IMG/VR virus record: IMGVR_UViG_3300013111_000758
Coordinates: 1 to 63,275 of that record
Reading direction: 5' to 3' (one strand)
DNA length: 63,275 nt
From: a virus
Within the stretch, counting starts at the first letter, position 1. Each line of letters opens with the position of its first letter. Both the position numbers and the translations under genes were made by a program. The notes beneath the pieces are model-generated. The model ran no database searches. It saw only the letters and a program-made list of their open reading frames with translations, and had not been told where the DNA came from. Below, one piece after another: positions 2,980 through 33,791 of the stretch.

Positions 2980-3864
2980 TCAGTCCAGATCTTCCCTCTC
3001 GCCGAGGGCCCATTCCAGCGCGTCGATCCGTCCCTGGAGGTTGTTGATGTCGGCGGTGAAGGCGACCACGCGGCCCGCGTTGGCGCCGTCGTTGACGATG
3101 TCCTGGATGGTGGTGGGCTTGTCGCGGTTCACCTCCATCATGGCCTCCTGCCGGGCGGTCATCTCACCGAGCTGCCCCTTCAGCTGCTTGACCGTCTTCT
3201 TGCCCGACTTGCGGCCGGTCTGCTGACGTACCTGCTGGCGCTTCTTGGTGACGTCGCCCTTCTTGCGGCCCTTCTTCTTCTCCTGCGTGTGGGCGTCGGC
3301 CGCCTGCTTCTGCTCCTCCGGGGGCTTCTGGGAGTAGTCGTAGGCGGCGTCGATGGAGACGTCCCCCTTGTGGACGCTGTCCATCAGCTCGGAGGTGGCA
3401 TCCTTCTTCAGCTTCATCAGCCGCTGCACGTGCCGGGTGGAGACACCCAGAGTCGTGGCGATCTCCGCCGGCGACATGCCGAAGCGCGCGAGGGTCTCGC
3501 AGGCCACGCACATCTCGGCGGGGGTGTACGCCTTGCGGTCGACGTCCAGGACGATGCCGGCGATGTTGGCGTCGCGGCGGGAGCCCTGGAGGCTGTAGTA
3601 GGGGACGCCGTCGGGGAAGCGAGCGGCGAAGTCGTCGGGGTGGTCGGTGGAGAGCATCTCGAGGGCGAGGTAGCGGCGCATGCCGTCGGCCAGGTAGGCG
3701 TCGCCCTTGTCGTCGAACCAGATGCCGAGGGGATCGGAGAGTCCTTGCGTCTTGATCCGGAAGGAGAGACCCTCCACGTCACCGAAGTCCCTCCTGGGAT
3801 TCTCGATGACCTCGGGGTCCACGATGATGGCGTCGAACGGGATGACAGGTTGCTTGTCGGTCAT
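2980..3864 (-). CDS. ParB-like DNA-binding protein
   Basis: 294 residues. The N-terminal domain has the ParB/Srx arrangement: a strand with NPRRDFGD, then LSFRIKTQGLSDPLGIWF and DGMRRYLALEML where canonical ParB has GERRxxA. A helix-turn-helix follows (MSPAEIATTLGVSTRHVQRLMKL), then a Lys/Arg/Gln-rich linker and a C-terminal coiled coil. Canonical ParB proteins bind palindromic parS sites and spread along DNA using CTP. ATG 3864 follows AGAGGAG. It is divergent from the terminase gene. No ParA is visible, so a role in packaging, transcription control or genome organisation is as likely as partition. It is a candidate reader of the dispersed palindrome, by inference only. Confidence 0.8.
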   Translation of the reverse strand: MTDKQPVIPFDAIIVDPEVIENPRRDFGDVEGLSFRIKTQGLSDPLGIWFDDKGDAYLADGMRRYLALEMLSTDHPDDFAARFPDGVPYYSLQGSRRDANIAGIVLDVDRKAYTPAEMCVACETLARFGMSPAEIATTLGVSTRHVQRLMKLKKDATSELMDSVHKGDVSIDAAYDYSQKPPEEQKQAADAHTQEKKKGRKKGDVTKKRQQVRQQTGRKSGKKTVKQLKGQLGEMTARQEAMMEVNRDKPTTIQDIVNDGANAGRVVAFTADINNLQGRIDALEWALGEREDLD

Positions 3865-3920
3865 GGTCTCCTCTGTATGGTAAGGTTGCCTGTACCCAGA
3901 TTTGTTGACAAGGAGGCTGT
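3865..3920. promoter_or_regulatory. Divergent ParB-like/terminase intergenic region
   Basis: 56 bases separating two divergent start codons. It holds both ribosome-binding sites (AGAGGAG for the minus gene, AGGAGG for the plus gene). A minus-strand ACAAAT with a TACCAT 17 bases on is promoter-like; a plus-strand TTGACA at 3905 lacks a matching -10. Promoter calls here are weak. Confidence 0.35.
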
Positions 3921-6900
3921 GTGCATCAGCCACTGTTTCATTCCCCAGGGCTGGCCCGGGTAGGTGTGAGTCGGGACGAGGCCCTCGCCCGAAGGGAAGA
4001 GGTACACGACCCGGAGTCCATGGTCTACGCCCGGCCCTCGGACTTCACCGAGTACGCCATCCGCGTGGTCGACCAGAAGGCCAACAAGGTCGTCCCCTTC
4101 TCGTACAAGGAGCGTCGCTACCTCCGACGGATCTACGACACAGGGGCCAAGCGCGTCCTGCTGAAGTGTGGCCGGCAGGTCGAGAAGACGCTGCACAAGT
4201 GTTCAGTAGTCACGACGGTGTCCGGTGCCCCGAAGACGATGGAGGACATCGAGGTAGGTGACCGAGTCATTGGCTTGGCTCCCGACGGGGCTCACACCGC
4301 CACGGGGGAAGTCACCTGGAAGTCTGAGGAGTACTCCAAGCCCTGCGTCCGGATGCGGACCCGACAGGGGCACGAGATCATCATCGCACTTACACACCCT
4401 ATGCGGACGTGGGGATCTTGGACGGAGGGCTCTGATCTGCGTGTTGGTACCAGGCTGGCCGTGGCAAGGCAGGCCGGGTTCTTCACGTGCCGAGGAGGGT
4501 CTGTCCTCAAGGACGAGTGGGTGGCTCTCGCTGGGGCGATGATTGCGGAGGGGGGTTGTGGTGGAAGCAGCTCCCCGAACTTCACGCAGAACGAGGGGGC
4601 ACTGCTCGACGACGTCCTCGACGCCTGCGTTCAGCTGGAGATTCCCTACAACCCGCACGAGAAGACGGACAGTGACGGCAGCTGGGTCCTGACGTTCGTT
4701 CAGCCTGAGCCTGGCGTGGACAACCCGGTCACGACCAAGCTGAAGCAGTGGGGGCTGTATGGCACCACCTCCCACACCAAGTTCGTTCCGGACTTCGTCT
4801 ACGAGCTGTCCCCCGGCCAGACGGCCCTCTTCCTCAACCGCCTCTGGGCCGGCGATGGGCACTGCAGCCTGCAGGACTCCTCGTACCACATCGAGTACGA
4901 CACCGTATCCGAGCGGCTGGCGCGGGATGTTCAACGCCTCCTCTGGAAATTCGGCATCCCCACCAGCTTCCGAAGGTGGAAGCCGAAGTTGTACTTGGGG
5001 ACCGACAAGTGGGCCTACAAGCTCCGCGTCGAGACGCAGGAGGGCGCCCGTAGATTCGTCGAGCACATAGGCGCGCTGAGCAAGACCGAGCACCTCCCCC
5101 TGTTGGGCGTTGACGAGAACAGCAACCGCGACACGTACCCGATGGAGATTGCGGAGGACATCAAAGCCATCCACCGCTCCCGCGAGGGCTACGCTCGTCG
5201 AGGTCGGTGGGTGCCCCAGCCCTCTCTCCGCTCGGCCGGTCTGCGCGAGAAGCCCAAGTACTCTCCCAGCAAGGCGAAGCTGCGGGAGTACGTCGAGTTC
5301 TTCCGGGCCGATGCTCGCTTCGACCAGGAGGCAGTGGACGAGCTCGAGGCCCACCTGGACACGGATCTGTTCTGGGATGAGGTCGTTGAGTACGTGGAGA
5401 TTGGGGAGCAGCCCTGCTACGACATCACGGTGGCTGCTACGGACAGCTTCATCGCCGATGGGTTCATCACCCACAACAGCACCATGCTCGGCAACCGGAT
5501 GCTGTCGATGTGCTGCCTCAACACAGGCTTCAAGTGCCTGTACGTGTCCCCCACCCACTCCCAGACGAACACGTTCAGCCGCGACAGACTGTCGGATCCC
5601 ATCACGCTGTCGCCGATCCTGTCGTCCTGGACGACGACCAAACTCACCGACAACATCCACCTCAAGAAGTTCATCAACCACAGCAACATCACCCTGCGCT
5701 ACGCGTACCACAACGCCGACCGTACTCGAGGTATCCCCTCGGACATGGTCACCATCGACGAGCTGCAGGACATCCTGATGACCAACATCCCGGTCATCGA
5801 GGAGACGGCCTCCCACTCCCCCTGGGGCATCTTCGTCTACTCGGGCACCCCGAAGACGACGGACAACCCCATGGAGCACTACTGGGTCTACTACTCGCGG
5901 CAGAACGAGTGGATGGTCCCGTGCGAGCGCCACGGCCTCCCCCGGCGGCCGGCCAGCTGGCACTGGAACATCCTGGGCGAGCGCAACATCGGCAAGCACG
6001 GCCCCATCTGCGACAAGTGCGGCGGGACCATCGACCCGATGCACCCCAAGGCGCACTGGCGGTCGCTCAACCCCAAGCCCGACATCCCCGAGCCGTTCGA
6101 GGGCTTCCGCATCCCGCAGCTGATGGTGCCCTGGATCGGGTGGACCGACATCCTCCAGAAGCAGAAGTTCTACGGCCGGGCCCAGTTCTACAACGAGGTC
6201 CTGGGCCTGAGCTACGACTCGGGGACCCGCCCCATCACGCGCAGGCACCTGCGAGCGCTGTGCAACCCCGAGCTGTCGATGTCGCGGGAGGGGCTGGAGA
6301 AGGTCCGGGAGAACATGGGCGGTGCCCGGGTCTTCATGGGCGTCGACTGGACCGGCGGGAGCAACAAGAGCTTCACGGTCGCCACCCTGGGGGCGTACCT
6401 CCCGGGGAGCCGGAAGTTCACCTACTTCTACGTGCACAGGTTCGAGGGCCAGGAGTCGGAGCCAGAGACCCAGCTCGAGCTCCTCAAGCAGCTCATCCGC
6501 AACTGGAACGTCGACGTCGTGGGTGTGGACTTCGGCGGCGGCTACTGGCCGAACAACGAGCTCATCAAGACCTTCGGCCCCCAGCGGGTCATCAAGTGGC
6601 AGTACAGCCAGCCCAACGAGAAGTGGCGGTGGGACGCGGGCCAGCAGCGGTACATGGTGAATCGCACGGCCGTGATGACCGACTTCTTCAACGCGCTGAA
6701 GCACGCCGACCGCCAGATCTTCGAGCTCCCCAAGTGGGAGGAGTTCCGTGAGCCCTACGCCACGGACTTCACCAACATCTTCAGCGAGTACAACGAGTCC
6801 CTCCGGCTCGACGAGTACAAGCTGGCCCCAGAGATGACGGACGACACCTGCCACTCCGCCCTCCTGTGCCTGCTGGCCTCCACCCTCCGGATCCCCCGCC

Positions 6901-23929: not shown

Positions 23930-26900
23930 ATGGCAGCTCTTGCAAAGCCCAACGTGTCCGTCATCCAGGAGTTCGCGACCACGAGTCCGACGATCCTGGT
24001 CCCGACCCTGCGCCCGTGCGTGGTGGGACCGGCGCTCGAGGTCGTGGAGGTGCTGGATGACGCCGGCGCCATCAACGACGACGCCAAGGACGGAGCCTAC
24101 GACCAGTTCCAGCAGGTGGTCACCCAGACCTCCTTCCCCGACCCGCGGGGGAACCTCGACGAGCTCGACATCCAGGAGAGCACCATCCGCGCCTTCCTGA
24201 CGTTCGGCGGCGCGATGTACGAGCTGGACAACGGGGACTCCCTCTACGGGACCTACGGCTCGTCCTTCCTGGCCTTCGCCAACTGGGCCTCCCGCGCGGC
24301 GATCATCGCCTCCGGGCCGGAGAACTACGCCTTCGGGGCCGGCCTGCTGTTGGCCTTCTGCGTCGACAACCCCCTGCGGACGGACACCTCCTCGGACATC
24401 ACCGTGGAGCTGACCGGCACGCTGACGGCCGAGGACACCGCCGACGAGATCAACGCGGCGGCGGGCGAGACCATCGCCTACTCCATCGAGGTCGCCCCCG
24501 GCGACACCCGCCTGGTGCTGGTGTCCAACACCTACGGTGCCGGGTCGTCCCTGACCATCCGGGCCAGCAGCGGCGCGGCAGGCATCCTGTACAGCGGCCT
24601 CCCCCTGAGCGGGGTCGAGGAGTACCGGATCGAGGGCTGCGGCTTCCGCGGCCAGGACGACGGCGACGTCGACACCACGACCCCGTGGATCGAGTTCTTC
24701 CGCGGTGAGGAGTACATGGACGGTGTCGCCGCCGGCGCGGCCGCGTGGCAGGCGGAGGGCAACCTCCGCGACGAGCTCGACGTCTTCACCAACGCGCGTG
24801 CGGCGGCCCGAACCTACTCCGGCGTGAGCCCGGACGTCCCCCTGCAGGCGGCCACGGCCGTCCTCCCGGGCGACATCTTCTACGCGGACGGCGCGCAGGT
24901 GGGCACCACGGCCGAGGTCATCGAGGTCCAGCAGGACCGCTTCCGTCTCGGGGTGCTCGACAGCGAGAACTCCGTCTTCGACGACGACGGCGTGCCCACC
25001 AGCCGGGTCTACACCGAGTTCGAGGTGGGCAACCTCTTCGACGGCACCCCGCTGGCGCCCCAGTACTGCTGGTTCGGCGCCCAGGGGCTGGTCGAAGGCA
25101 ACATCGTCCCGACCCCGGTGGCTGCGGCACTCACCGGCAGCACGGAGGCCTCCGCCGCCCTGTTCGGCTACCTCGTGGGCGGTCCGGTGGCCACGGCCAA
25201 CTTCCCACTCCTCATCGGCAACAAGCGCCTGTACCTGCGGGCCACGGTCGATGGCGTCCGTGGGGCCGAGCAGACCGTCCTGTTCAGCGGGACGTTCAAC
25301 TCCATGGCGGACGTGGCCGCGGCCATCACCGCGCAGGCCACCGACATCATCGCCACCTCCTACACCGACGTCACGGCTGCCGAGCAGTACCTGACCCTGC
25401 AGACCGGCGCGACCGGAGCGGACCAGGCCGTCGAGGTGAGCGAGACTGGCGCGTTCAACGCCGTGACCGACCTGGAGATGGACGCGGCCTCCCGCTCCGG
25501 CGGCAGCGGAGTCGGCGTGGACGCCGAGTTCTCCACCCAGGCCTTCGTCACCGGCGGCCCGGACGACGGCGAGACCCCCGGACCCTACGTCTTCCCGCTG
25601 GTGGGCGGTGAGCTGCTGGACTACACGGTCACCGACCGCAACGGTACGACCCTCAGCCTCGCCTACACCCTGGATGCTGCCGACGTCGGCGCACCGGCGG
25701 CGAACACCTGGGCCGGCCTGGCCGCCCACCTCAACGCCGGAGGCAACGGAACGGCGCTGCCGGCCAACGGCATGCCCAACTGCCCGATGGTGGAGTTCAT
25801 CGGGGACGACACCGCCAACGCTCGAGGCCTGACCATCCGGGTGCTCGAGGGCGGCAGCGGCACGGCCATCGACGTGGACGAGGCCACCACGCACGCCAAC
25901 TTCAGCTTCGCGGGCGCCCGCGTGGCTGCCACGGCGGACATCGTCATCGCAGGTGGCGACCCCGGTGCCGCCGCGGCCATCACCGTCGACACGACGGAGC
26001 TCGGTGGCGCGGCCCGCGTGTCCGCGGCGGCTGGCGGTGGGCCCACGGACTGGGTCATCACGGCGGGTGACATCCCGGCGACCATCGCCTCCCTCGCGGC
26101 AGGACTGTCGGCACACCCGGACATCACGGCGGTCGACAACGGCGTCGACACGGTGACCGTGACTGTGGCCACCACGGGCTGGCGCGGCAACCTCTGCACC
26201 ATCGTGTCGAGCGACTTCACCAACATGACCATCCAGGGTGGGGCGGTCATCGCCTTCCTCACGGGTGGAACGGCCACGTCTACCCAGACCGCACTCATCG
26301 GTCCCGCCACCGCGGGCGGTGACATCCTCACCGTCGACACCGCGGCCGTCGGCGGCTCGCAGGTGGACTACGAGGCTGGTGGTGTGGACTGGGTCGGCAA
26401 CGGGGCGGCTGGGGCCTCCTCCCTGGTCACCGCCATCAACACCGGGCCCCAGAACGGTGAGGTGTACGCCCACAACCTGGACGCCGTAGGCGCGGCCCAG
26501 GCCACTGTGACTCTCTACGCGCTCAACCCCGACGGCTACCTCGCCAACCTGTGCTGGGCGCAGACCACCGACTTCGCCCAGATCAACGTGGCAGGCGCGG
26601 GCGACCTCCTGGAGCACGAGTTCACGGGCGGCACCGAGGACAACGACAACGACACGGGCGCCGACGTGCTGACGGGCGAGGAGTTCGCCTTCCAGCTCGA
26701 CTACAACCCGCACGAGTGGGTGGTGACGCCGGCCAACGACTCCCTCGACGACCTGATCGAGATGATCAACGAGGAGGTCAACGACAACATCGTGGCCACG
26801 GCAGGCGGCACCAACACCCGCCAGCTGGTCCTGACCAGCCTCCTGCTGGGCCAGGCGTCGAGGGTGGAGGTCCTGGCGGACACCGCCAGCCGCATCATCA

Positions 26901-28465
26901 CCTCGGCGGCGCTGGGCATGGCGACCCCGAACCACGAGGCGGACGGCTCCGGCCGACCGAACCCGGACTTCTACCTGGACCTCAACCTCAGCGTGGTCAT
27001 CGGGGCGCAGATCCTCCGTGACACCGTCACGGGCATCCCCTTCGACAACGACTACCTGGGGACCTCCGACATCTACCTGCAGTACCACGCGCTGCGCCTG
27101 GACCTGAGCCCGTCGGCCGACAGCCCGGCGCTGCTCATCGTGGAGGACACCACCACGCTCGAGTCCATCCTGGATCCGCTGACCGCGGACAACCCGCTGG
27201 GCCTGGGCCTGTTCTTCGCCAAGCTGAACGCCCCGGGCGTGAGCGTGGCGGGGCTCGGCGTCGACGAGGTGACCGCGGCCATGCCGGAGGGCACCCTGAC
27301 GGCCTACACCCAGGCCGCCGAGTTCCTCGAGAGCGAGGAGGTCTACGCTCTCGCGCCGCTGACCCACGAGGAGGTGGTGCACCAGCTGTTCAAGACCCAC
27401 GTCGACTACATGAGCGGGTCGGACCTGCGCGGCGAGCGCATCGTCTTCATCAACCCGGAGGTCCCGGACGAGGAGGCGCCGACGACGGCCGCCAGCGGCA
27501 CCGACGGCAACAGCACCGGCGCGGACAACCAGTTCATCGTCGACGAGAACCCCCACACCGCCCTCGTGGCGGCGGGGGTCGCCAACCCGGCGGTCATGCC
27601 GGTGAGCGACGGGGTGTACCTCGAGATCACCGTCGGCGGTGAGCAGCGGCGGTACAACCTCAGCGCCATCAACGGAGCGCTGGTCACCATCAACCTGACC
27701 TTCGCGGCCGGGGAGAACGACGACAGCTTCTACTCCACCGAGACGCTCCTGGCCGGCCTGCTCATCAGCGTCGACTGGGCCATCAAGGTCCGGGGCGACG
27801 CCCTGGTGGTGGCCGGGGTCTCCGACCTCGACGGCATCGCCACGGCGGTGGCCACGGTCGCCTCGACCTACGCCGACCGCCGGGTCTACTACGTCTTCCC
27901 GGACTCGGTGACCGCGGAGCTCGACGCCGGGACGGCGGCGCTGCCGGCCTACTACGCCTGCTGCGCCATCGCCGGCATGGTGGGCCAGCTGGTGCCCCAG
28001 CAGGGCTTCACCAACTACCCGATGACCGGCTTCACGGGGGTCACCGGGTCGAACGACATCTTCAAGGACTCGCTGCTCGACGAGATCGCCGGCGGCGGGG
28101 TGTACATCCTCATCCAGGAGGCGGACGGGGCTCCGGTCATCTGCCGCCACCAGCTGTCCACGGACGTCACCAGCATCGAGACGAGGGAGCTCTCCATCAC
28201 CAAGGTGGTGGACTTCACCGCCAAGACGCTGCGGACGGGCCTGCGCAACTTCCTGGGGATCTACAACATCACCCCGGCGTTCATGGACACCCTGACCACG
28301 GTGGTCGACGGCATGCTCGACTTCCTCAAGCAGGGTGGCGTGCTCATCGGAGCCTCGCTGAACAGCATCAGCCAGGACACGACCAACCCGGACACGGTCC
28401 TCATCGACGTGACCCTGGAGGTCCCGTACCCGTGCAACTACATCAGGGTTACCTTGGTTGTCTGA
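23930..28465 (+). CDS. Tail sheath protein, very long
   Basis: 1511 residues, two to three times the usual sheath length. The C-terminal domain has the sheath signature: APVICRHQLSTDVTSIETRELSITKVVDF, LRTGLRNFLGIYN and a final beta strand YIRVTLVV that in known sheaths swaps into the neighbouring subunit. The N-terminus (KPNVSVIQEF...LVPTLRPCVVGP) is also typical. Between about residues 380 and 930 lie three or more beta-rich modules with A-x-x-I-x-A-type helices and T-V-x-T-V strands, probably surface domains. GAGGAG precedes ATG 23930. The last ten codons use AGG, GTT and TTG, unlike the rest of the gene, because an HNH element has replaced the original end. Confidence 0.9.
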   Translation: MAALAKPNVSVIQEFATTSPTILVPTLRPCVVGPALEVVEVLDDAGAINDDAKDGAYDQFQQVVTQTSFPDPRGNLDELDIQESTIRAFLTFGGAMYELDNGDSLYGTYGSSFLAFANWASRAAIIASGPENYAFGAGLLLAFCVDNPLRTDTSSDITVELTGTLTAEDTADEINAAAGETIAYSIEVAPGDTRLVLVSNTYGAGSSLTIRASSGAAGILYSGLPLSGVEEYRIEGCGFRGQDDGDVDTTTPWIEFFRGEEYMDGVAAGAAAWQAEGNLRDELDVFTNARAAARTYSGVSPDVPLQAATAVLPGDIFYADGAQVGTTAEVIEVQQDRFRLGVLDSENSVFDDDGVPTSRVYTEFEVGNLFDGTPLAPQYCWFGAQGLVEGNIVPTPVAAALTGSTEASAALFGYLVGGPVATANFPLLIGNKRLYLRATVDGVRGAEQTVLFSGTFNSMADVAAAITAQATDIIATSYTDVTAAEQYLTLQTGATGADQAVEVSETGAFNAVTDLEMDAASRSGGSGVGVDAEFSTQAFVTGGPDDGETPGPYVFPLVGGELLDYTVTDRNGTTLSLAYTLDAADVGAPAANTWAGLAAHLNAGGNGTALPANGMPNCPMVEFIGDDTANARGLTIRVLEGGSGTAIDVDEATTHANFSFAGARVAATADIVIAGGDPGAAAAITVDTTELGGAARVSAAAGGGPTDWVITAGDIPATIASLAAGLSAHPDITAVDNGVDTVTVTVATTGWRGNLCTIVSSDFTNMTIQGGAVIAFLTGGTATSTQTALIGPATAGGDILTVDTAAVGGSQVDYEAGGVDWVGNGAAGASSLVTAINTGPQNGEVYAHNLDAVGAAQATVTLYALNPDGYLANLCWAQTTDFAQINVAGAGDLLEHEFTGGTEDNDNDTGADVLTGEEFAFQLDYNPHEWVVTPANDSLDDLIEMINEEVNDNIVATAGGTNTRQLVLTSLLLGQASRVEVLADTASRIITSAALGMATPNHEADGSGRPNPDFYLDLNLSVVIGAQILRDTVTGIPFDNDYLGTSDIYLQYHALRLDLSPSADSPALLIVEDTTTLESILDPLTADNPLGLGLFFAKLNAPGVSVAGLGVDEVTAAMPEGTLTAYTQAAEFLESEEVYALAPLTHEEVVHQLFKTHVDYMSGSDLRGERIVFINPEVPDEEAPTTAASGTDGNSTGADNQFIVDENPHTALVAAGVANPAVMPVSDGVYLEITVGGEQRRYNLSAINGALVTINLTFAAGENDDSFYSTETLLAGLLISVDWAIKVRGDALVVAGVSDLDGIATAVATVASTYADRRVYYVFPDSVTAELDAGTAALPAYYACCAIAGMVGQLVPQQGFTNYPMTGFTGVTGSNDIFKDSLLDEIAGGGVYILIQEADGAPVICRHQLSTDVTSIETRELSITKVVDFTAKTLRTGLRNFLGIYNITPAFMDTLTTVVDGMLDFLKQGGVLIGASLNSISQDTTNPDTVLIDVTLEVPYPCNYIRVTLVV
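28436..28465 (+). repeat. Recoded sheath C-terminus (copy A)
   Basis: Codons for N-Y-I-R-V-T-L-V-V-stop that close the sheath gene. Nine of ten codons encode the same residues as the copy at 29141-29170, with six base changes, five of them synonymous. Codon choice (AGG, GTT, TTG) is atypical for this genome and like the adjacent HNH element. Confidence 0.8.
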
Positions 28466-28479
28466 CGCAGATGGTCTAA

Positions 28480-28503
28480 CATTCCGGGTGGAGGCCCGGA
28501 ATG
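28480..28503 (+). promoter_or_regulatory. Hairpin sequestering HNH start signals
   Basis: Perfect 9-bp stem CATTCCGGG / CCCGGAATG with loop TGGAGG. The Shine-Dalgarno sequence GGAGG fills the loop and the ATG start (28501-28503) closes the stem, so the structure should limit initiation on read-through sheath mRNA. Translational silencing by such hairpins is known for T4 homing endonucleases. Confidence 0.75.
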
Positions 28504-29142
28504 GGGAAGGTCAAGAAGTGCAAGATCTCAGTCTGCAGCAAGAAGATGCACGCCAGGGGGTTCTGTTCGACCCACTACGCGTACTGGAGGGCCGGCATCT
28601 TCGACCTGGAGGGCAACCAGCTCAGGCCGTTTGCACGCAAGGGCTCGTGGAAGGGCCACACGTGCAAGCAGGAGGGCTGCGATGACCCAGTGCGAGCGCG
28701 GGGATGGTGCAATCGGCACTACCTGCAAGTACGTAGTGGCATCATCGACGAGAGTGGCAATCAGCTTCGGGACCCCAAACGGCGAAAGCCACGGAAGGGG
28801 TACAGGTACTACCTGAAGGAGTACCTGAAGGTGCGGGCGCCCGATGGCCACCCGCACACGGACAAGGACGGCTACATCCTCGAGCACCGTCTCGTGATGG
28901 AGCAACACTTGGGCCGCTTCCTGGAGCCGGGAGAGGTCGTCCACCACCTCAACGGGGTGCGGGACGACAACCGGATTGAGAACCTGCAGCTCCGAAGGAG
29001 CCGCAAGGAGCATGGGCACGGCCACGAAAGGCTGGACGATGTGAGTGCTGCTCTGGCACTGTTGGAGCAGCTGGTGAACAAGGGGATGACTGATGGCCGC
29101 GAGACCAAACAGAGGCTGCAACGTCTGGCCCGTCGCCTCTGA
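28501..29142 (+). CDS. HNH homing endonuclease inserted after tail sheath
   Basis: 213 residues. Two N-terminal zinc modules repeat (C...C...[13 protein letters not shown] and [20 protein letters not shown]), probably for target recognition. The catalytic HNH segment is [38 protein letters not shown], with His-His and Asn residues in place for a metal-bound nicking or cutting site. The start is inside a hairpin. Codon use is less GC-biased than neighbours. Its last codons read through the remnant of the original sheath 3' end in another frame, and its stop overlaps that remnant. It is a free-standing mobile endonuclease rather than a virion protein. Confidence 0.88.
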
Positions 29143-29170
29143 CTACATCCGCGTCACCCTGGTGGTCTGA
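29141..29170 (+). pseudogene. Displaced original sheath 3' end (copy B)
   Basis: Encodes D-Y-I-R-V-T-L-V-V-stop with GC-rich codons normal for this phage. In the same frame upstream it continues as V-W-P-V-A-S, paralleling V-P-Y-P-C of the intact gene, so about 45 bases of the original 3' end appear to survive after insertion of the HNH element. Confidence 0.75.
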
Positions 29171-31853: not shown

Positions 31854-32828
31854 ATGGCGAACCCCTCGAACCTCCCCGACCTCAACTGGACGCTCAGCGG
31901 CATGAAGCGCTTCGAGCTGGAGCACGGTGACTCCGGCATCGGGCTGCTCGAGACGCTGTACGACCTGGTCACGGCCAGCACGCACTGGGACGTCGTCTCG
32001 TTCGACCCCGGCTTCACGTGGATCGAGGTGGCCCCCAAGGACGCCGGCGCGGTCGGCCTGGACGACATGCGGGCCATCTTCCGCAACGGAGCGGCCACGA
32101 ACCGCCTCCGTGGTGGGCCGTGGAACGCCGACGACATCAGCGTGGGGGTACACCCCAACGTCTCCGGCGCAGGAGCCATGGCGGACCACGACAGCACCAC
32201 GCCGTGGGGCGGTGGCGCAAGTTGGGCGTTCTCCAACTACGTGCGCTGCGTGGACATCGCCGCCATCGACATGATCCAGATCGTGGAGTCCGAAGAGGTT
32301 CTGGTGCTCATCGGTTACGACTGGGCGGCTGACCAGATGCACTGCCTCACGATGGTCGGGTTCTGGCTGGATCCCGTCACCGAGGAGAACGGTATCGACT
32401 TCTACTCCGAGGGCAGCATCGGCCGCATCGTCGGCATGCAGAACACGGAGAACATGCAGGTCTCCAACGGCTTCTGGAACTCCACCAACAACCTGCTCAA
32501 CTACAACAACGGTGCGAACAACAACAGCATGTACTGCCTGAAGCCGGACGGCACGACCTGGAGCCACGTGCAGAGGTTCGAGGTCACCGGGTACCCGACT
32601 GAGCAGCGTCACGTCACTATGGACCCCGGAGCTGTGGTGACGCGGGTCAACTACTACTACATCACGGGCAGTCAGTACGCAGGCACGTCCCGCCAGTGGG
32701 GAATGACCTCGGACGGTATGGGTGTGCGTGCGCGTAGGGAGGGCGGCCCCAGCGGTGACCTCAAGCAGATCGCCGTATCGTCGGTGCCCCGCGGCGAGGC
32801 GGACTCCGTGGGCTTCGCCAACGTGTAG
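31854..32828 (+). CDS. Virion protein, tandem paralogue 1
   Basis: 324 residues. Shares with the next gene a common plan: LxTLYDLVTASTHWDVVS near residue 35, ISVGVHPNVSGAGAMADHDSTTPWGG, an AFSxY segment, a VSNGFWNSTNNLLNYNNGANN block, and an RQWGMT motif near the end. Beta-rich with many Asn/Thr, as in surface-exposed tail or fibre proteins. ATG 31854 follows GAGGTAG. Probably a host-contact or tail-decoration protein; family unknown. Confidence 0.6.
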   Translation: MANPSNLPDLNWTLSGMKRFELEHGDSGIGLLETLYDLVTASTHWDVVSFDPGFTWIEVAPKDAGAVGLDDMRAIFRNGAATNRLRGGPWNADDISVGVHPNVSGAGAMADHDSTTPWGGGASWAFSNYVRCVDIAAIDMIQIVESEEVLVLIGYDWAADQMHCLTMVGFWLDPVTEENGIDFYSEGSIGRIVGMQNTENMQVSNGFWNSTNNLLNYNNGANNNSMYCLKPDGTTWSHVQRFEVTGYPTEQRHVTMDPGAVVTRVNYYYITGSQYAGTSRQWGMTSDGMGVRARREGGPSGDLKQIAVSSVPRGEADSVGFANV

Positions 32829-32837
32829 GAGGACAGC

Positions 32838-33791
32838 GTGAGCGACACCAATTTGCCCAAGCTCACCTGGGATACGAGCGCGGTGGTGAACCTCGCCGCG
32901 GGGCACGGCCAGGATGGTGCGGGGATGGTCGAGACCATCCACGACATCATCGACGCCAGCACCTACTGGCGGGTGGTGAGCGAGCACGGCACCTTCGACT
33001 GGATCGAGATCGCGCCGAAGGTCGGCGAGGACTGCGAGGACATGCGTGTCCTCGTGCGCCACACCGTCCCGACCAACAAGATTCGGGCCTACACCTCTGG
33101 CGTCGACGACCTGTACGTCGGCATCCACCCCAACGTGGGCGGCGCAGCGCTGGTGGACCACGACGCGGTGGACCCGTGGGGTGGCGCGACCGGCTACGCT
33201 TTCAGCCAGTACGCCAACGCCTTCCACGCAACCGCTGTCTCTGGGGTCGAGGACCTCATGGTCATCGAGTGCGAGGAGGCGCTGCACATCCTGGGCCTGG
33301 ACACCGGGGGCAACCTGCGGCACGCCTTCTTGGGGCACCTCTTGGACCCCCGCTCCTCCATCAACGGCGACGACTTCTACTCGGAGACGCCTGCGGTGTA
33401 CCGAAAGCTGGCGTTGTTCTCCAGCGAGGACAAGGTGGCCCAGAACGGCTTCTGGAACACGGGCAACGACTTCCTCACGTACAACAACGGCGCAAACAAC
33501 CACCTGTGCTACACCTTGCGCCCGGACGGCGTCTGGGCGCACATGCAGCGCCTCGAGCAGACTCCTTTCCTCACGACCACACGCAATACGGATGCGGGTG
33601 GGCGCGAGTACTCTTTCCCGGTGTCGTACTTCCACATCAACCAGACGTTCGCTGGGGTATCGCGCCAGTGGGGCACGACCAACAACATGCAGGGGGTCGT
33701 CGAGCAGGAGGTGGCGGCTGTTCTGGTGCGAGTACAGGTCGGGGCGCACAGGTCTTCGGACCAGCATGCCATGGCGCACAACAACGAGTAG
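32838..33791 (+). CDS. Virion protein, tandem paralogue 2
   Basis: 317 residues, clearly homologous to the preceding protein: METIHDIIDASTYWRVVS, LYVGIHPNVGGAALVDHDAVDPWGG, AFSQY, NGFWNTGNDFLTYNNGANN and SRQWGTTNN align in order. The C-terminal 40 residues differ. GTG 32838 follows GGAGG. The pair arose by tandem duplication and may form alternative or hetero-oligomeric surface structures. Confidence 0.6.
   Translation: MSDTNLPKLTWDTSAVVNLAAGHGQDGAGMVETIHDIIDASTYWRVVSEHGTFDWIEIAPKVGEDCEDMRVLVRHTVPTNKIRAYTSGVDDLYVGIHPNVGGAALVDHDAVDPWGGATGYAFSQYANAFHATAVSGVEDLMVIECEEALHILGLDTGGNLRHAFLGHLLDPRSSINGDDFYSETPAVYRKLALFSSEDKVAQNGFWNTGNDFLTYNNGANNHLCYTLRPDGVWAHMQRLEQTPFLTTTRNTDAGGREYSFPVSYFHINQTFAGVSRQWGTTNNMQGVVEQEVAAVLVRVQVGAHRSSDQHAMAHNNE

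What the first reader, a model, noticed from the sequence alone, without database searches (positions are those of the whole stretch)
28430..29170. HNH element carries a recoded sheath C-terminus and leaves the old end downstream
The sheath gene now ends with codons for N-Y-I-R-V-T-L-V-V using AGG, GTT and TTG; straight after the HNH gene the same peptide (D-Y-I-R-V-T-L-V-V-stop) is encoded again with GC-rich codons, and homologous sequence (V-W-P-V-A-S) continues upstream in that frame. Five of the six differences are synonymous. The simplest model is a free-standing endonuclease that inserts near a gene's 3' end and brings its own synonymous end, restoring the host gene and destroying the cleavage site. 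This resembles intein/intron logic without splicing.
Basis: partly seen in the sequence, partly recalled or inferred. Interest (0 to 1): 0.88.

Follow-up and report, generated by a model that had tools for sequence, protein, structure and literature searches.

The report
Phage endonuclease carries recoded gene ending
A small selfish DNA-cutting gene sits in the end of an essential phage gene, brings a synonymously rewritten copy of that gene's last codons so the gene still works, and leaves the old ending behind; this is a natural counterpart of engineered 'home-and-rescue' gene drives.

Summary
In the window the tail-sheath gene ends YIRVTLVV* in codons rare for this phage (28437-28465). An HNH_3 endonuclease gene follows (28501-29142), then the same peptide in native codons (29142-29170). 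The claimed upstream homology 'VWPVAS' is not homology. This HNH family follows 15 of 73 distinct sheath 3' ends in IMG/VR. Two further phages keep an old-end remnant, and all three remnants fit one insertion point, 25 nt before the gene end. Counting all genes, 12 of 157 HNH loci repeat the upstream gene's C-terminus near the HNH stop (0.15 expected).

The decisive case is cultured. Gordonia phage Kabocha carries an 813-bp HNH element in its terminase 3' end. Joining its flanks reproduces sisters Hanem and Gray exactly over 1600 nt. Its last 18 codons differ at 18 nt with no amino-acid change, and the displaced end equals the sisters' native end. ChisanaKitsune has a chimeric element/native end without the HNH gene, consistent with loss. 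Cleavage, immunity and homing were not tested. The logic is known from fungal-mitochondrial mobile ORFs; I found no phage description in the open-access library.

The parts
23930..28465 (+). Tail sheath gene (1511 aa), the invaded gene
   Evidence: PHROG 279 tail sheath, E 1.1e-12, residues 1311-1511
28437..28465 (+). New, element-borne sheath ending (ACTACATC shared with the old end, then AGG GTT ACC TTG GTT GTC TGA recoded)
   Evidence: Rare codons for this phage; five synonymous nt differences from the old end
28480..28503 (+). Perfect 9-bp hairpin CATTCCGGG-TGGAGG-CCCGGAATG with the ribosome-binding site in the loop and the HNH start codon in the stem
   Evidence: Predicted fold -21 kcal/mol for 28470-28512, z -4.45; equivalent hairpins before the HNH gene of sheath relatives
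28501..29142 (+). HNH_3 endonuclease gene (213 aa) with repeated C-x4-C-x9-C-x2-H zinc-finger-like motifs in front of the HNH domain
   Evidence: Pfam PF13392, E 1.2e-12; PHROG HNH endonucleases; alignment of 11 sheath-linked homologues
29142..29170 (+). Displaced old sheath ending ACTACATCCGCGTCACCCTGGTGGTCTGA
   Evidence: Encodes YIRVTLVV* in native codons; 20 of 21 nt match to the best element-free sheath end
28441..29145 (+). Inferred mobile element, 705 bp, if the insertion point is 25 nt before the old gene end (equivalently 28437-29141)
   Evidence: Copy spacing is exactly 705 bp; the remnants of L043 and L182 fit the same point; base-precise insertion in Kabocha

Best explanation
The segment is a homing-type mobile element made of a free-standing HNH endonuclease gene plus a rescue ending for its target gene. 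Proposed cycle. (1) The HNH protein recognises and cuts or nicks the 3' end of an essential, conserved gene (here the tail sheath, about 25 nt before the end) in a co-infecting phage that lacks the element; inferred. (2) The left broken end recombines with the donor's homologous gene and copies the donor's gene ending and the HNH gene; transfer of tail plus HNH as one block is shown by comparison in related phages. (3) The right end is joined at the break, so the recipient's old ending is left behind after the HNH gene; the outcome is shown by comparison in Kabocha and by remnants in three sheath genes. (4) The imported ending encodes the same peptide in different codons, so the target protein is intact (shown) and the cut site should be destroyed (inferred). 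(5) The element can be lost by recombination between the two endings, leaving a chimeric scar such as that in ChisanaKitsune (sequence shown, route inferred). A hairpin over the ribosome-binding site probably keeps nuclease expression low or late (inferred).
For: Kabocha versus Hanem and Gray: precise 813-bp insertion, identical flanks over 1600 nt, 18 synonymous nt changes and no amino-acid change in the last 18 codons, displaced end identical to the native one. ChisanaKitsune end: the element's nucleotide at all 8 distinguishing sites of the first six codons, native nucleotides at all later ones, no HNH gene. L173/L176: 1021-bp identical block from 39 nt before the end of the sheath stop through the HNH gene, inside DNA 8.5% and 5% diverged. 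Three independent sheath remnants at one compatible insertion point. Twelve of 157 HNH loci with a repeated C-terminus against 0.15 expected. Over ten new/old pairs, 52 synonymous against 10 amino-acid codon changes. Foreign codon usage of the new end. Sheath-linked HNH genes at 15 of 73 distinct sheath 3' ends.
Against: No cleavage, immunity or homing assay exists. HNH and sheath distances correlate (Mantel r 0.67), so most sheath-linked copies look vertically or locally inherited. Only three of 15 sheath elements keep a recognisable remnant, and 24 further HNH loci in named phages show no clear repeat. The recoding tests on sheaths (Mann-Whitney p 0.006 and 0.0008) do not correct for shared ancestry. 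The imported ending may be merely diverged, not selected for resistance.
Confidence: 0.85

Rival explanations
1. Passive passenger: the HNH gene and a diverged gene ending came in by ordinary homologous plus illegitimate recombination from another phage. The codon differences are only donor divergence and the endonuclease plays no part in the insertion.
For: The block shared by L173 and L176 could be any recombination tract. The last third of Kabocha's new end shares several codons with the relative FlyingTortilla, so donor divergence is a plausible source of the codon changes.
Against: Insertion at one point of the sheath gene in three remnant-bearing phages, base-precise insertion in Kabocha, and the same arrangement in many unrelated genes, always with an HNH gene in this scan, need a site-specific agent.
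Confidence: 0.1
2. Target-site duplication: insertion duplicated the gene's own last 25-29 nt, and the attached copy later changed its codons under selection or drift.
For: The window copies share ACTACATC exactly and the L182 copies share 14 nt, as a diverged direct repeat would.
Against: In Kabocha the flanks and the displaced end are identical to the sisters' DNA, while the attached end differs at 18 of 57 nt; in-place mutation at that pace with everything else unchanged is not credible.
Confidence: 0.03
3. Spliced intron: the segment from the sheath end to the remnant is removed from the RNA, so that the downstream ending is the one used.
For: The insertion is base-precise, as expected for an intron, and HNH genes are common in group I introns (PMC3984707).
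Against: No Rfam intron match at E up to 1 in six occupied loci. Kabocha's insert ends in T or A, not the terminal G of group I introns. A complete alternative coding end with its own stop codon would serve no purpose in an intron, and in L043 the HNH frame runs through the remnant.
Confidence: 0.02

Closest known systems
Fungal mitochondrial mobile ORFs with C-terminal gene hybrids (Glomus atp6, atp9, cox2, nad3; Allomyces atp6), PMC3630166
   Same: An endonuclease ORF inserted at a gene's 3' part brings its own C-terminus, the native C-terminus is left downstream, the native copy matches relatives, and the DNA differs far more than the protein.
   Different: LAGLIDADG or GIY-YIG nucleases in mitochondria, not HNH_3 genes in dsDNA phages. 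There the imported ends reach 240 nt; here the directly measured replacement is about 25 to 57 nt. A sister pair identical on both flanks is available here.
Free-standing phage homing endonucleases of T4 (Seg and Mob), PMC2988022
   Same: Free-standing endonuclease gene outside introns, next to essential genes, hairpin over the ribosome-binding site (mobE, segB), co-conversion of flanking DNA.
   Different: The review describes cut sites hundreds or thousands of bp from the gene and no replaced gene ending or displaced remnant.
ShiLan insertion with hidden HNH gene in a phage methylase, PMC11855218
   Same: HNH gene inserted in a phage gene without intron or intein features; the first 11 residues of the insert resemble the 11 residues beyond the insertion site, the same signature.
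   Different: It lies inside the gene and is read through in frame with the HNH gene in another frame; the resemblance was discussed there as a possible intron signature, not as a rescue ending.
Engineered home-and-rescue (HomeR) gene drive, PMC7968924
   Same: Targets the 3' coding end of an essential gene and carries a re-coded ending that restores function and is protected from cleavage.
   Different: An engineered Cas9 system in insects, against a natural HNH element in phages. HomeR uses an added 3' UTR to prevent recombination, while the natural element keeps the old end and may be lost through it.

Membership tests
Free-standing HNH homing endonuclease | HNH nuclease domain with a DNA-binding region | tested here: met
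   Pfam HNH_3 in window, L043, L182 and Kabocha proteins; conserved zinc-finger-like Cys/His repeats in the alignment
Free-standing HNH homing endonuclease | Gene stands outside any intron or intein | tested here: met
   No Rfam intron; separate ORF with its own start and stop
Free-standing HNH homing endonuclease | Present/absent polymorphism between close relatives | tested here: met
   Kabocha occupied; Hanem, Gray, Chidiebere, Schomber empty; for the window no close empty relative was found
Free-standing HNH homing endonuclease | Site-specific cleavage and biased inheritance | not testable with these tools
   Needs purified protein and mixed infection
Free-standing HNH homing endonuclease | Cut site hundreds to thousands of bp from the gene (T4 type) | tested here: inconclusive
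   The remnants suggest a break at the insertion point, but cleavage itself was not measured
Fungal mitochondrial C-terminal mobile ORF | Imported C-terminus attached to the gene, native C-terminus displaced behind the endonuclease ORF | tested here: met
   Window, L043, L182 and Kabocha
Fungal mitochondrial C-terminal mobile ORF | LAGLIDADG or GIY-YIG endonuclease in a mitochondrial genome | tested here: not met
   HNH_3 in phage genomes
Group I intron | Conserved catalytic RNA core | tested here: not met
   No match at E up to 1 in six loci
Group I intron | Insert ends in G | tested here: not met
   Kabocha insert ends in T or A
Intein | Insert translated in frame with the host protein and no stop codon between | tested here: not met
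   Stop codon at 28463-28465 before the HNH gene
DNA transposon | Target-site duplication | tested here: not met
   Kabocha insertion adds no duplicated target beyond one ambiguous T; the repeat is a diverged copy

The most novel reading that the evidence does not exclude
Phages and bacteria host a general class of terminus-replacing homing elements. Nucleases of more than one family (HNH_3 and, at the same sheath site, EndoVII-like proteins) insert at the ends of essential genes with a recoded ending or, in a mirror-image form, a replacement start (L173). They persist by rescuing the gene instead of by splicing, and are lost through recombination that leaves cleavage-resistant scars.
Probability: 0.6. 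Interest if true: 0.87.

Novelty: new variant of a known kind. Interest (0 to 1): 0.8.

Why it matters
Introns and inteins let homing endonucleases live inside essential genes by splicing. This element uses a third route, replacing the interrupted end with a synonymous one. That would explain why some 'intergenic' phage HNH genes sit directly behind essential genes, and it reveals a source of synonymous change at gene ends. It is a natural precedent for engineered home-and-rescue drives. Cultured sister phages with occupied, empty and scar-like sites make every step directly testable.

Tried and rejected
'VWPVAS' as homologous sheath sequence: rejected. ATCTGA after the HNH stop in L031 and L040 as a short remnant: rejected, because a terminator-like hairpin follows and close variants of the hexamer recur in related elements. 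Empty close relative of the window: not found; only its near-identical twin contig L002/L042 (occupied) and relatives at or below 64% protein identity. Remnants at 24 further HNH loci of named phages: none clear. Rfam introns: none; the weak cspA match in L043 is far below its cut-off. Tail-tube gene of L248 in cultured phages: only relatives at 33-41% identity, useless as empty sites. The genome search could not be centred on a locus id, and prevalence in bacteria was not pursued beyond. Pfam did not name the L135 and L140 nucleases; calling them EndoVII-like is by eye. L107 and L055 in the C-terminus scan may be chance matches and are not relied on.

Full report
What is in the window. The window is an uncultured virus contig. 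Its tail sheath gene (23930-28465; PHROG 279) ends TAC ATC AGG GTT ACC TTG GTT GTC TGA. An HNH_3 endonuclease gene follows at 28501-29142 (Pfam E 1.2e-12). Immediately after it, overlapping its stop codon, lies ACTACATCCGCGTCACCCTGGTGGTCTGA (29142-29170), the same peptide and stop in other codons. The two copies are exactly 705 bp apart, and their differences in the shared codons are all synonymous. The upstream copy uses codons that are rare in this phage's structural genes (5.2, 1.3, 1.1 and 1.3% of their amino acids), while the downstream copy uses common ones. The foreign ending is therefore the one now attached to the sheath.

A family of elements at sheath 3' ends. Searches with the sheath C-terminus and with the HNH protein gave 73 distinct sheath 3' ends, 15 of which are followed directly by this HNH family. 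The closest HNH homologues all sit there. The usual anatomy is: altered sheath end, a short gap, a hairpin with the ribosome-binding site in or next to its loop, the HNH gene, and then either a remnant of the old sheath end, a terminator-like hairpin, or the next gene. Two further remnants exist. In L043 the HNH reading frame runs straight into IRLTLVV*. In L182 the sheath ends NQIRVTLVV* and the remnant is QIRVTLVV*, so a lineage-specific Gln is present in both copies. All three remnants are compatible with one insertion point, 25 nt before the end of the native gene. Element-bearing sheaths have AT-shifted, less native last codons than the others, but that test ignores shared ancestry. L173 and L176 share a 1021-bp identical block, from 39 nt before the end of the sheath stop through the HNH gene, inside DNA that is 8.5% (upstream) and 5% (downstream) diverged. 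The recoded tail and the nuclease therefore moved as one unit. Over the whole family HNH and sheath distances correlate (Mantel r 0.67), so most inheritance looks vertical or local.

Not only sheaths. I scanned distinct HNH loci from viral and bacterial contigs for a repeat of the upstream gene's C-terminus near the HNH stop. At a BLOSUM score of 30 or more, 12 of 157 loci have one, against 0.15 expected from permuted peptides. This count includes the three sheath loci and the related pair L247/L248. Other host genes include a tail tube protein, a C5 DNA methyltransferase, a TROVE protein and an Hjc-like protein. Over ten new/old pairs there are 52 synonymous codon changes and 10 amino-acid changes.

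Direct empty-site test in cultured phages. Gordonia phage Kabocha has an HNH gene after its terminase gene, and the terminase C-terminus is encoded again after the HNH gene. Its sisters Hanem and Gray lack the HNH gene. Kabocha contains an 813-bp element between GTCGACGCACT and CAGCGGTGCG, and joining its flanks gives DNA identical to both sisters over 1600 nt. The last 18 codons of Kabocha's terminase differ from the sisters at 18 nt and at no amino acid, and the displaced end is identical to theirs. ChisanaKitsune, which has no HNH gene there, carries the element's nucleotide at all 8 distinguishing sites in the first six codons of this end and native nucleotides at all later ones. This is what recombination between the two endings would leave; a truncated conversion tract is an alternative.

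Mechanism. The best model is homing with rescue. The nuclease cuts the 3' end of an essential gene; repair copies the donor's diverged ending and the nuclease gene; the recipient's old end is joined behind it; and the imported ending keeps the protein and should remove the cut site. Shown here by comparison: insertion at a defined point, protein-preserving replacement, displacement of the old end, transfer as a unit, and a scar consistent with loss. Inferred: cleavage, immunity of the recoded end, hairpin control, and homing bias. Whether the codon changes were selected or simply came from a diverged donor is open; the functional consequence would be the same.

Comparison with the known. The same logic is published for fungal mitochondrial mobile ORFs with LAGLIDADG and GIY-YIG nucleases (PMC3630166). 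T4 free-standing endonucleases share the gene type and hairpin control, but their cut sites are described as hundreds or thousands of bp away (PMC2988022). The ShiLan insertion paper notes that the insert's first 11 residues resemble those beyond the site, without this interpretation (PMC11855218). Engineered home-and-rescue drives use the same design on purpose (PMC7968924). I found no description of terminus-replacing HNH elements in phages in the open-access library; subscription papers were not searched. I therefore class it as a new variant of a known kind.

Noticed in passing
L173 (IMGVR_UViG_3300050025_000074) 4585-5354: A second, EndoVII-like endonuclease insert lies after codon 7 of the gene following the HNH element. 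The old start (ATG TCT GAT TTT TCA ACT TGG) is left upstream and a new start (ATG AGC TCT TCA TTC TCC GAC TGG) is supplied at 5333: a mirror-image, N-terminal version.
   Followed up: partly
L135 about 3626-4348 and L140 about 3620-4360: Zinc-ribbon, EndoVII-like genes of another family sit directly after the sheath gene; the L135 sheath end is also atypical (AGA CTC ACG CTT GTG ATA TAG). Pfam gives no name.
   Followed up: partly
L038 and L146, just after the sheath stop: Sheath ends with AGG codons followed only by a terminator-like hairpin resembling the one that ends HNH elements, with no HNH gene; possible scars of lost elements.
   Followed up: no
L333 1783-2490 (Gordonia phage Kabocha gp17): The annotated HNH start (1897) is probably too late; an in-frame ATG overlapping the terminase stop (1783) adds zinc-finger-like motifs.
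   Followed up: partly
L343 947-2374 (Mycobacterium phage Constella): A methyltransferase gene with an HNH gene overlapping it in another frame, as in the published ShiLan insertion.
   Followed up: no
L346 1630-2349 (Gordonia phage UBSmoodge): The HNH ORF between tape-measure and LysM genes begins MATVQ..., like the VATVQ start of the LysM gene after it; possibly another displaced gene start.
   Followed up: no
window 23930-28465: The sheath is unusually long (1511 aa) and only its last 200 residues match the sheath family.
   Followed up: no
window 31854-32828 and 32838-33791: Two adjacent ORFs encode proteins that look like diverged tandem paralogues.
   Followed up: no
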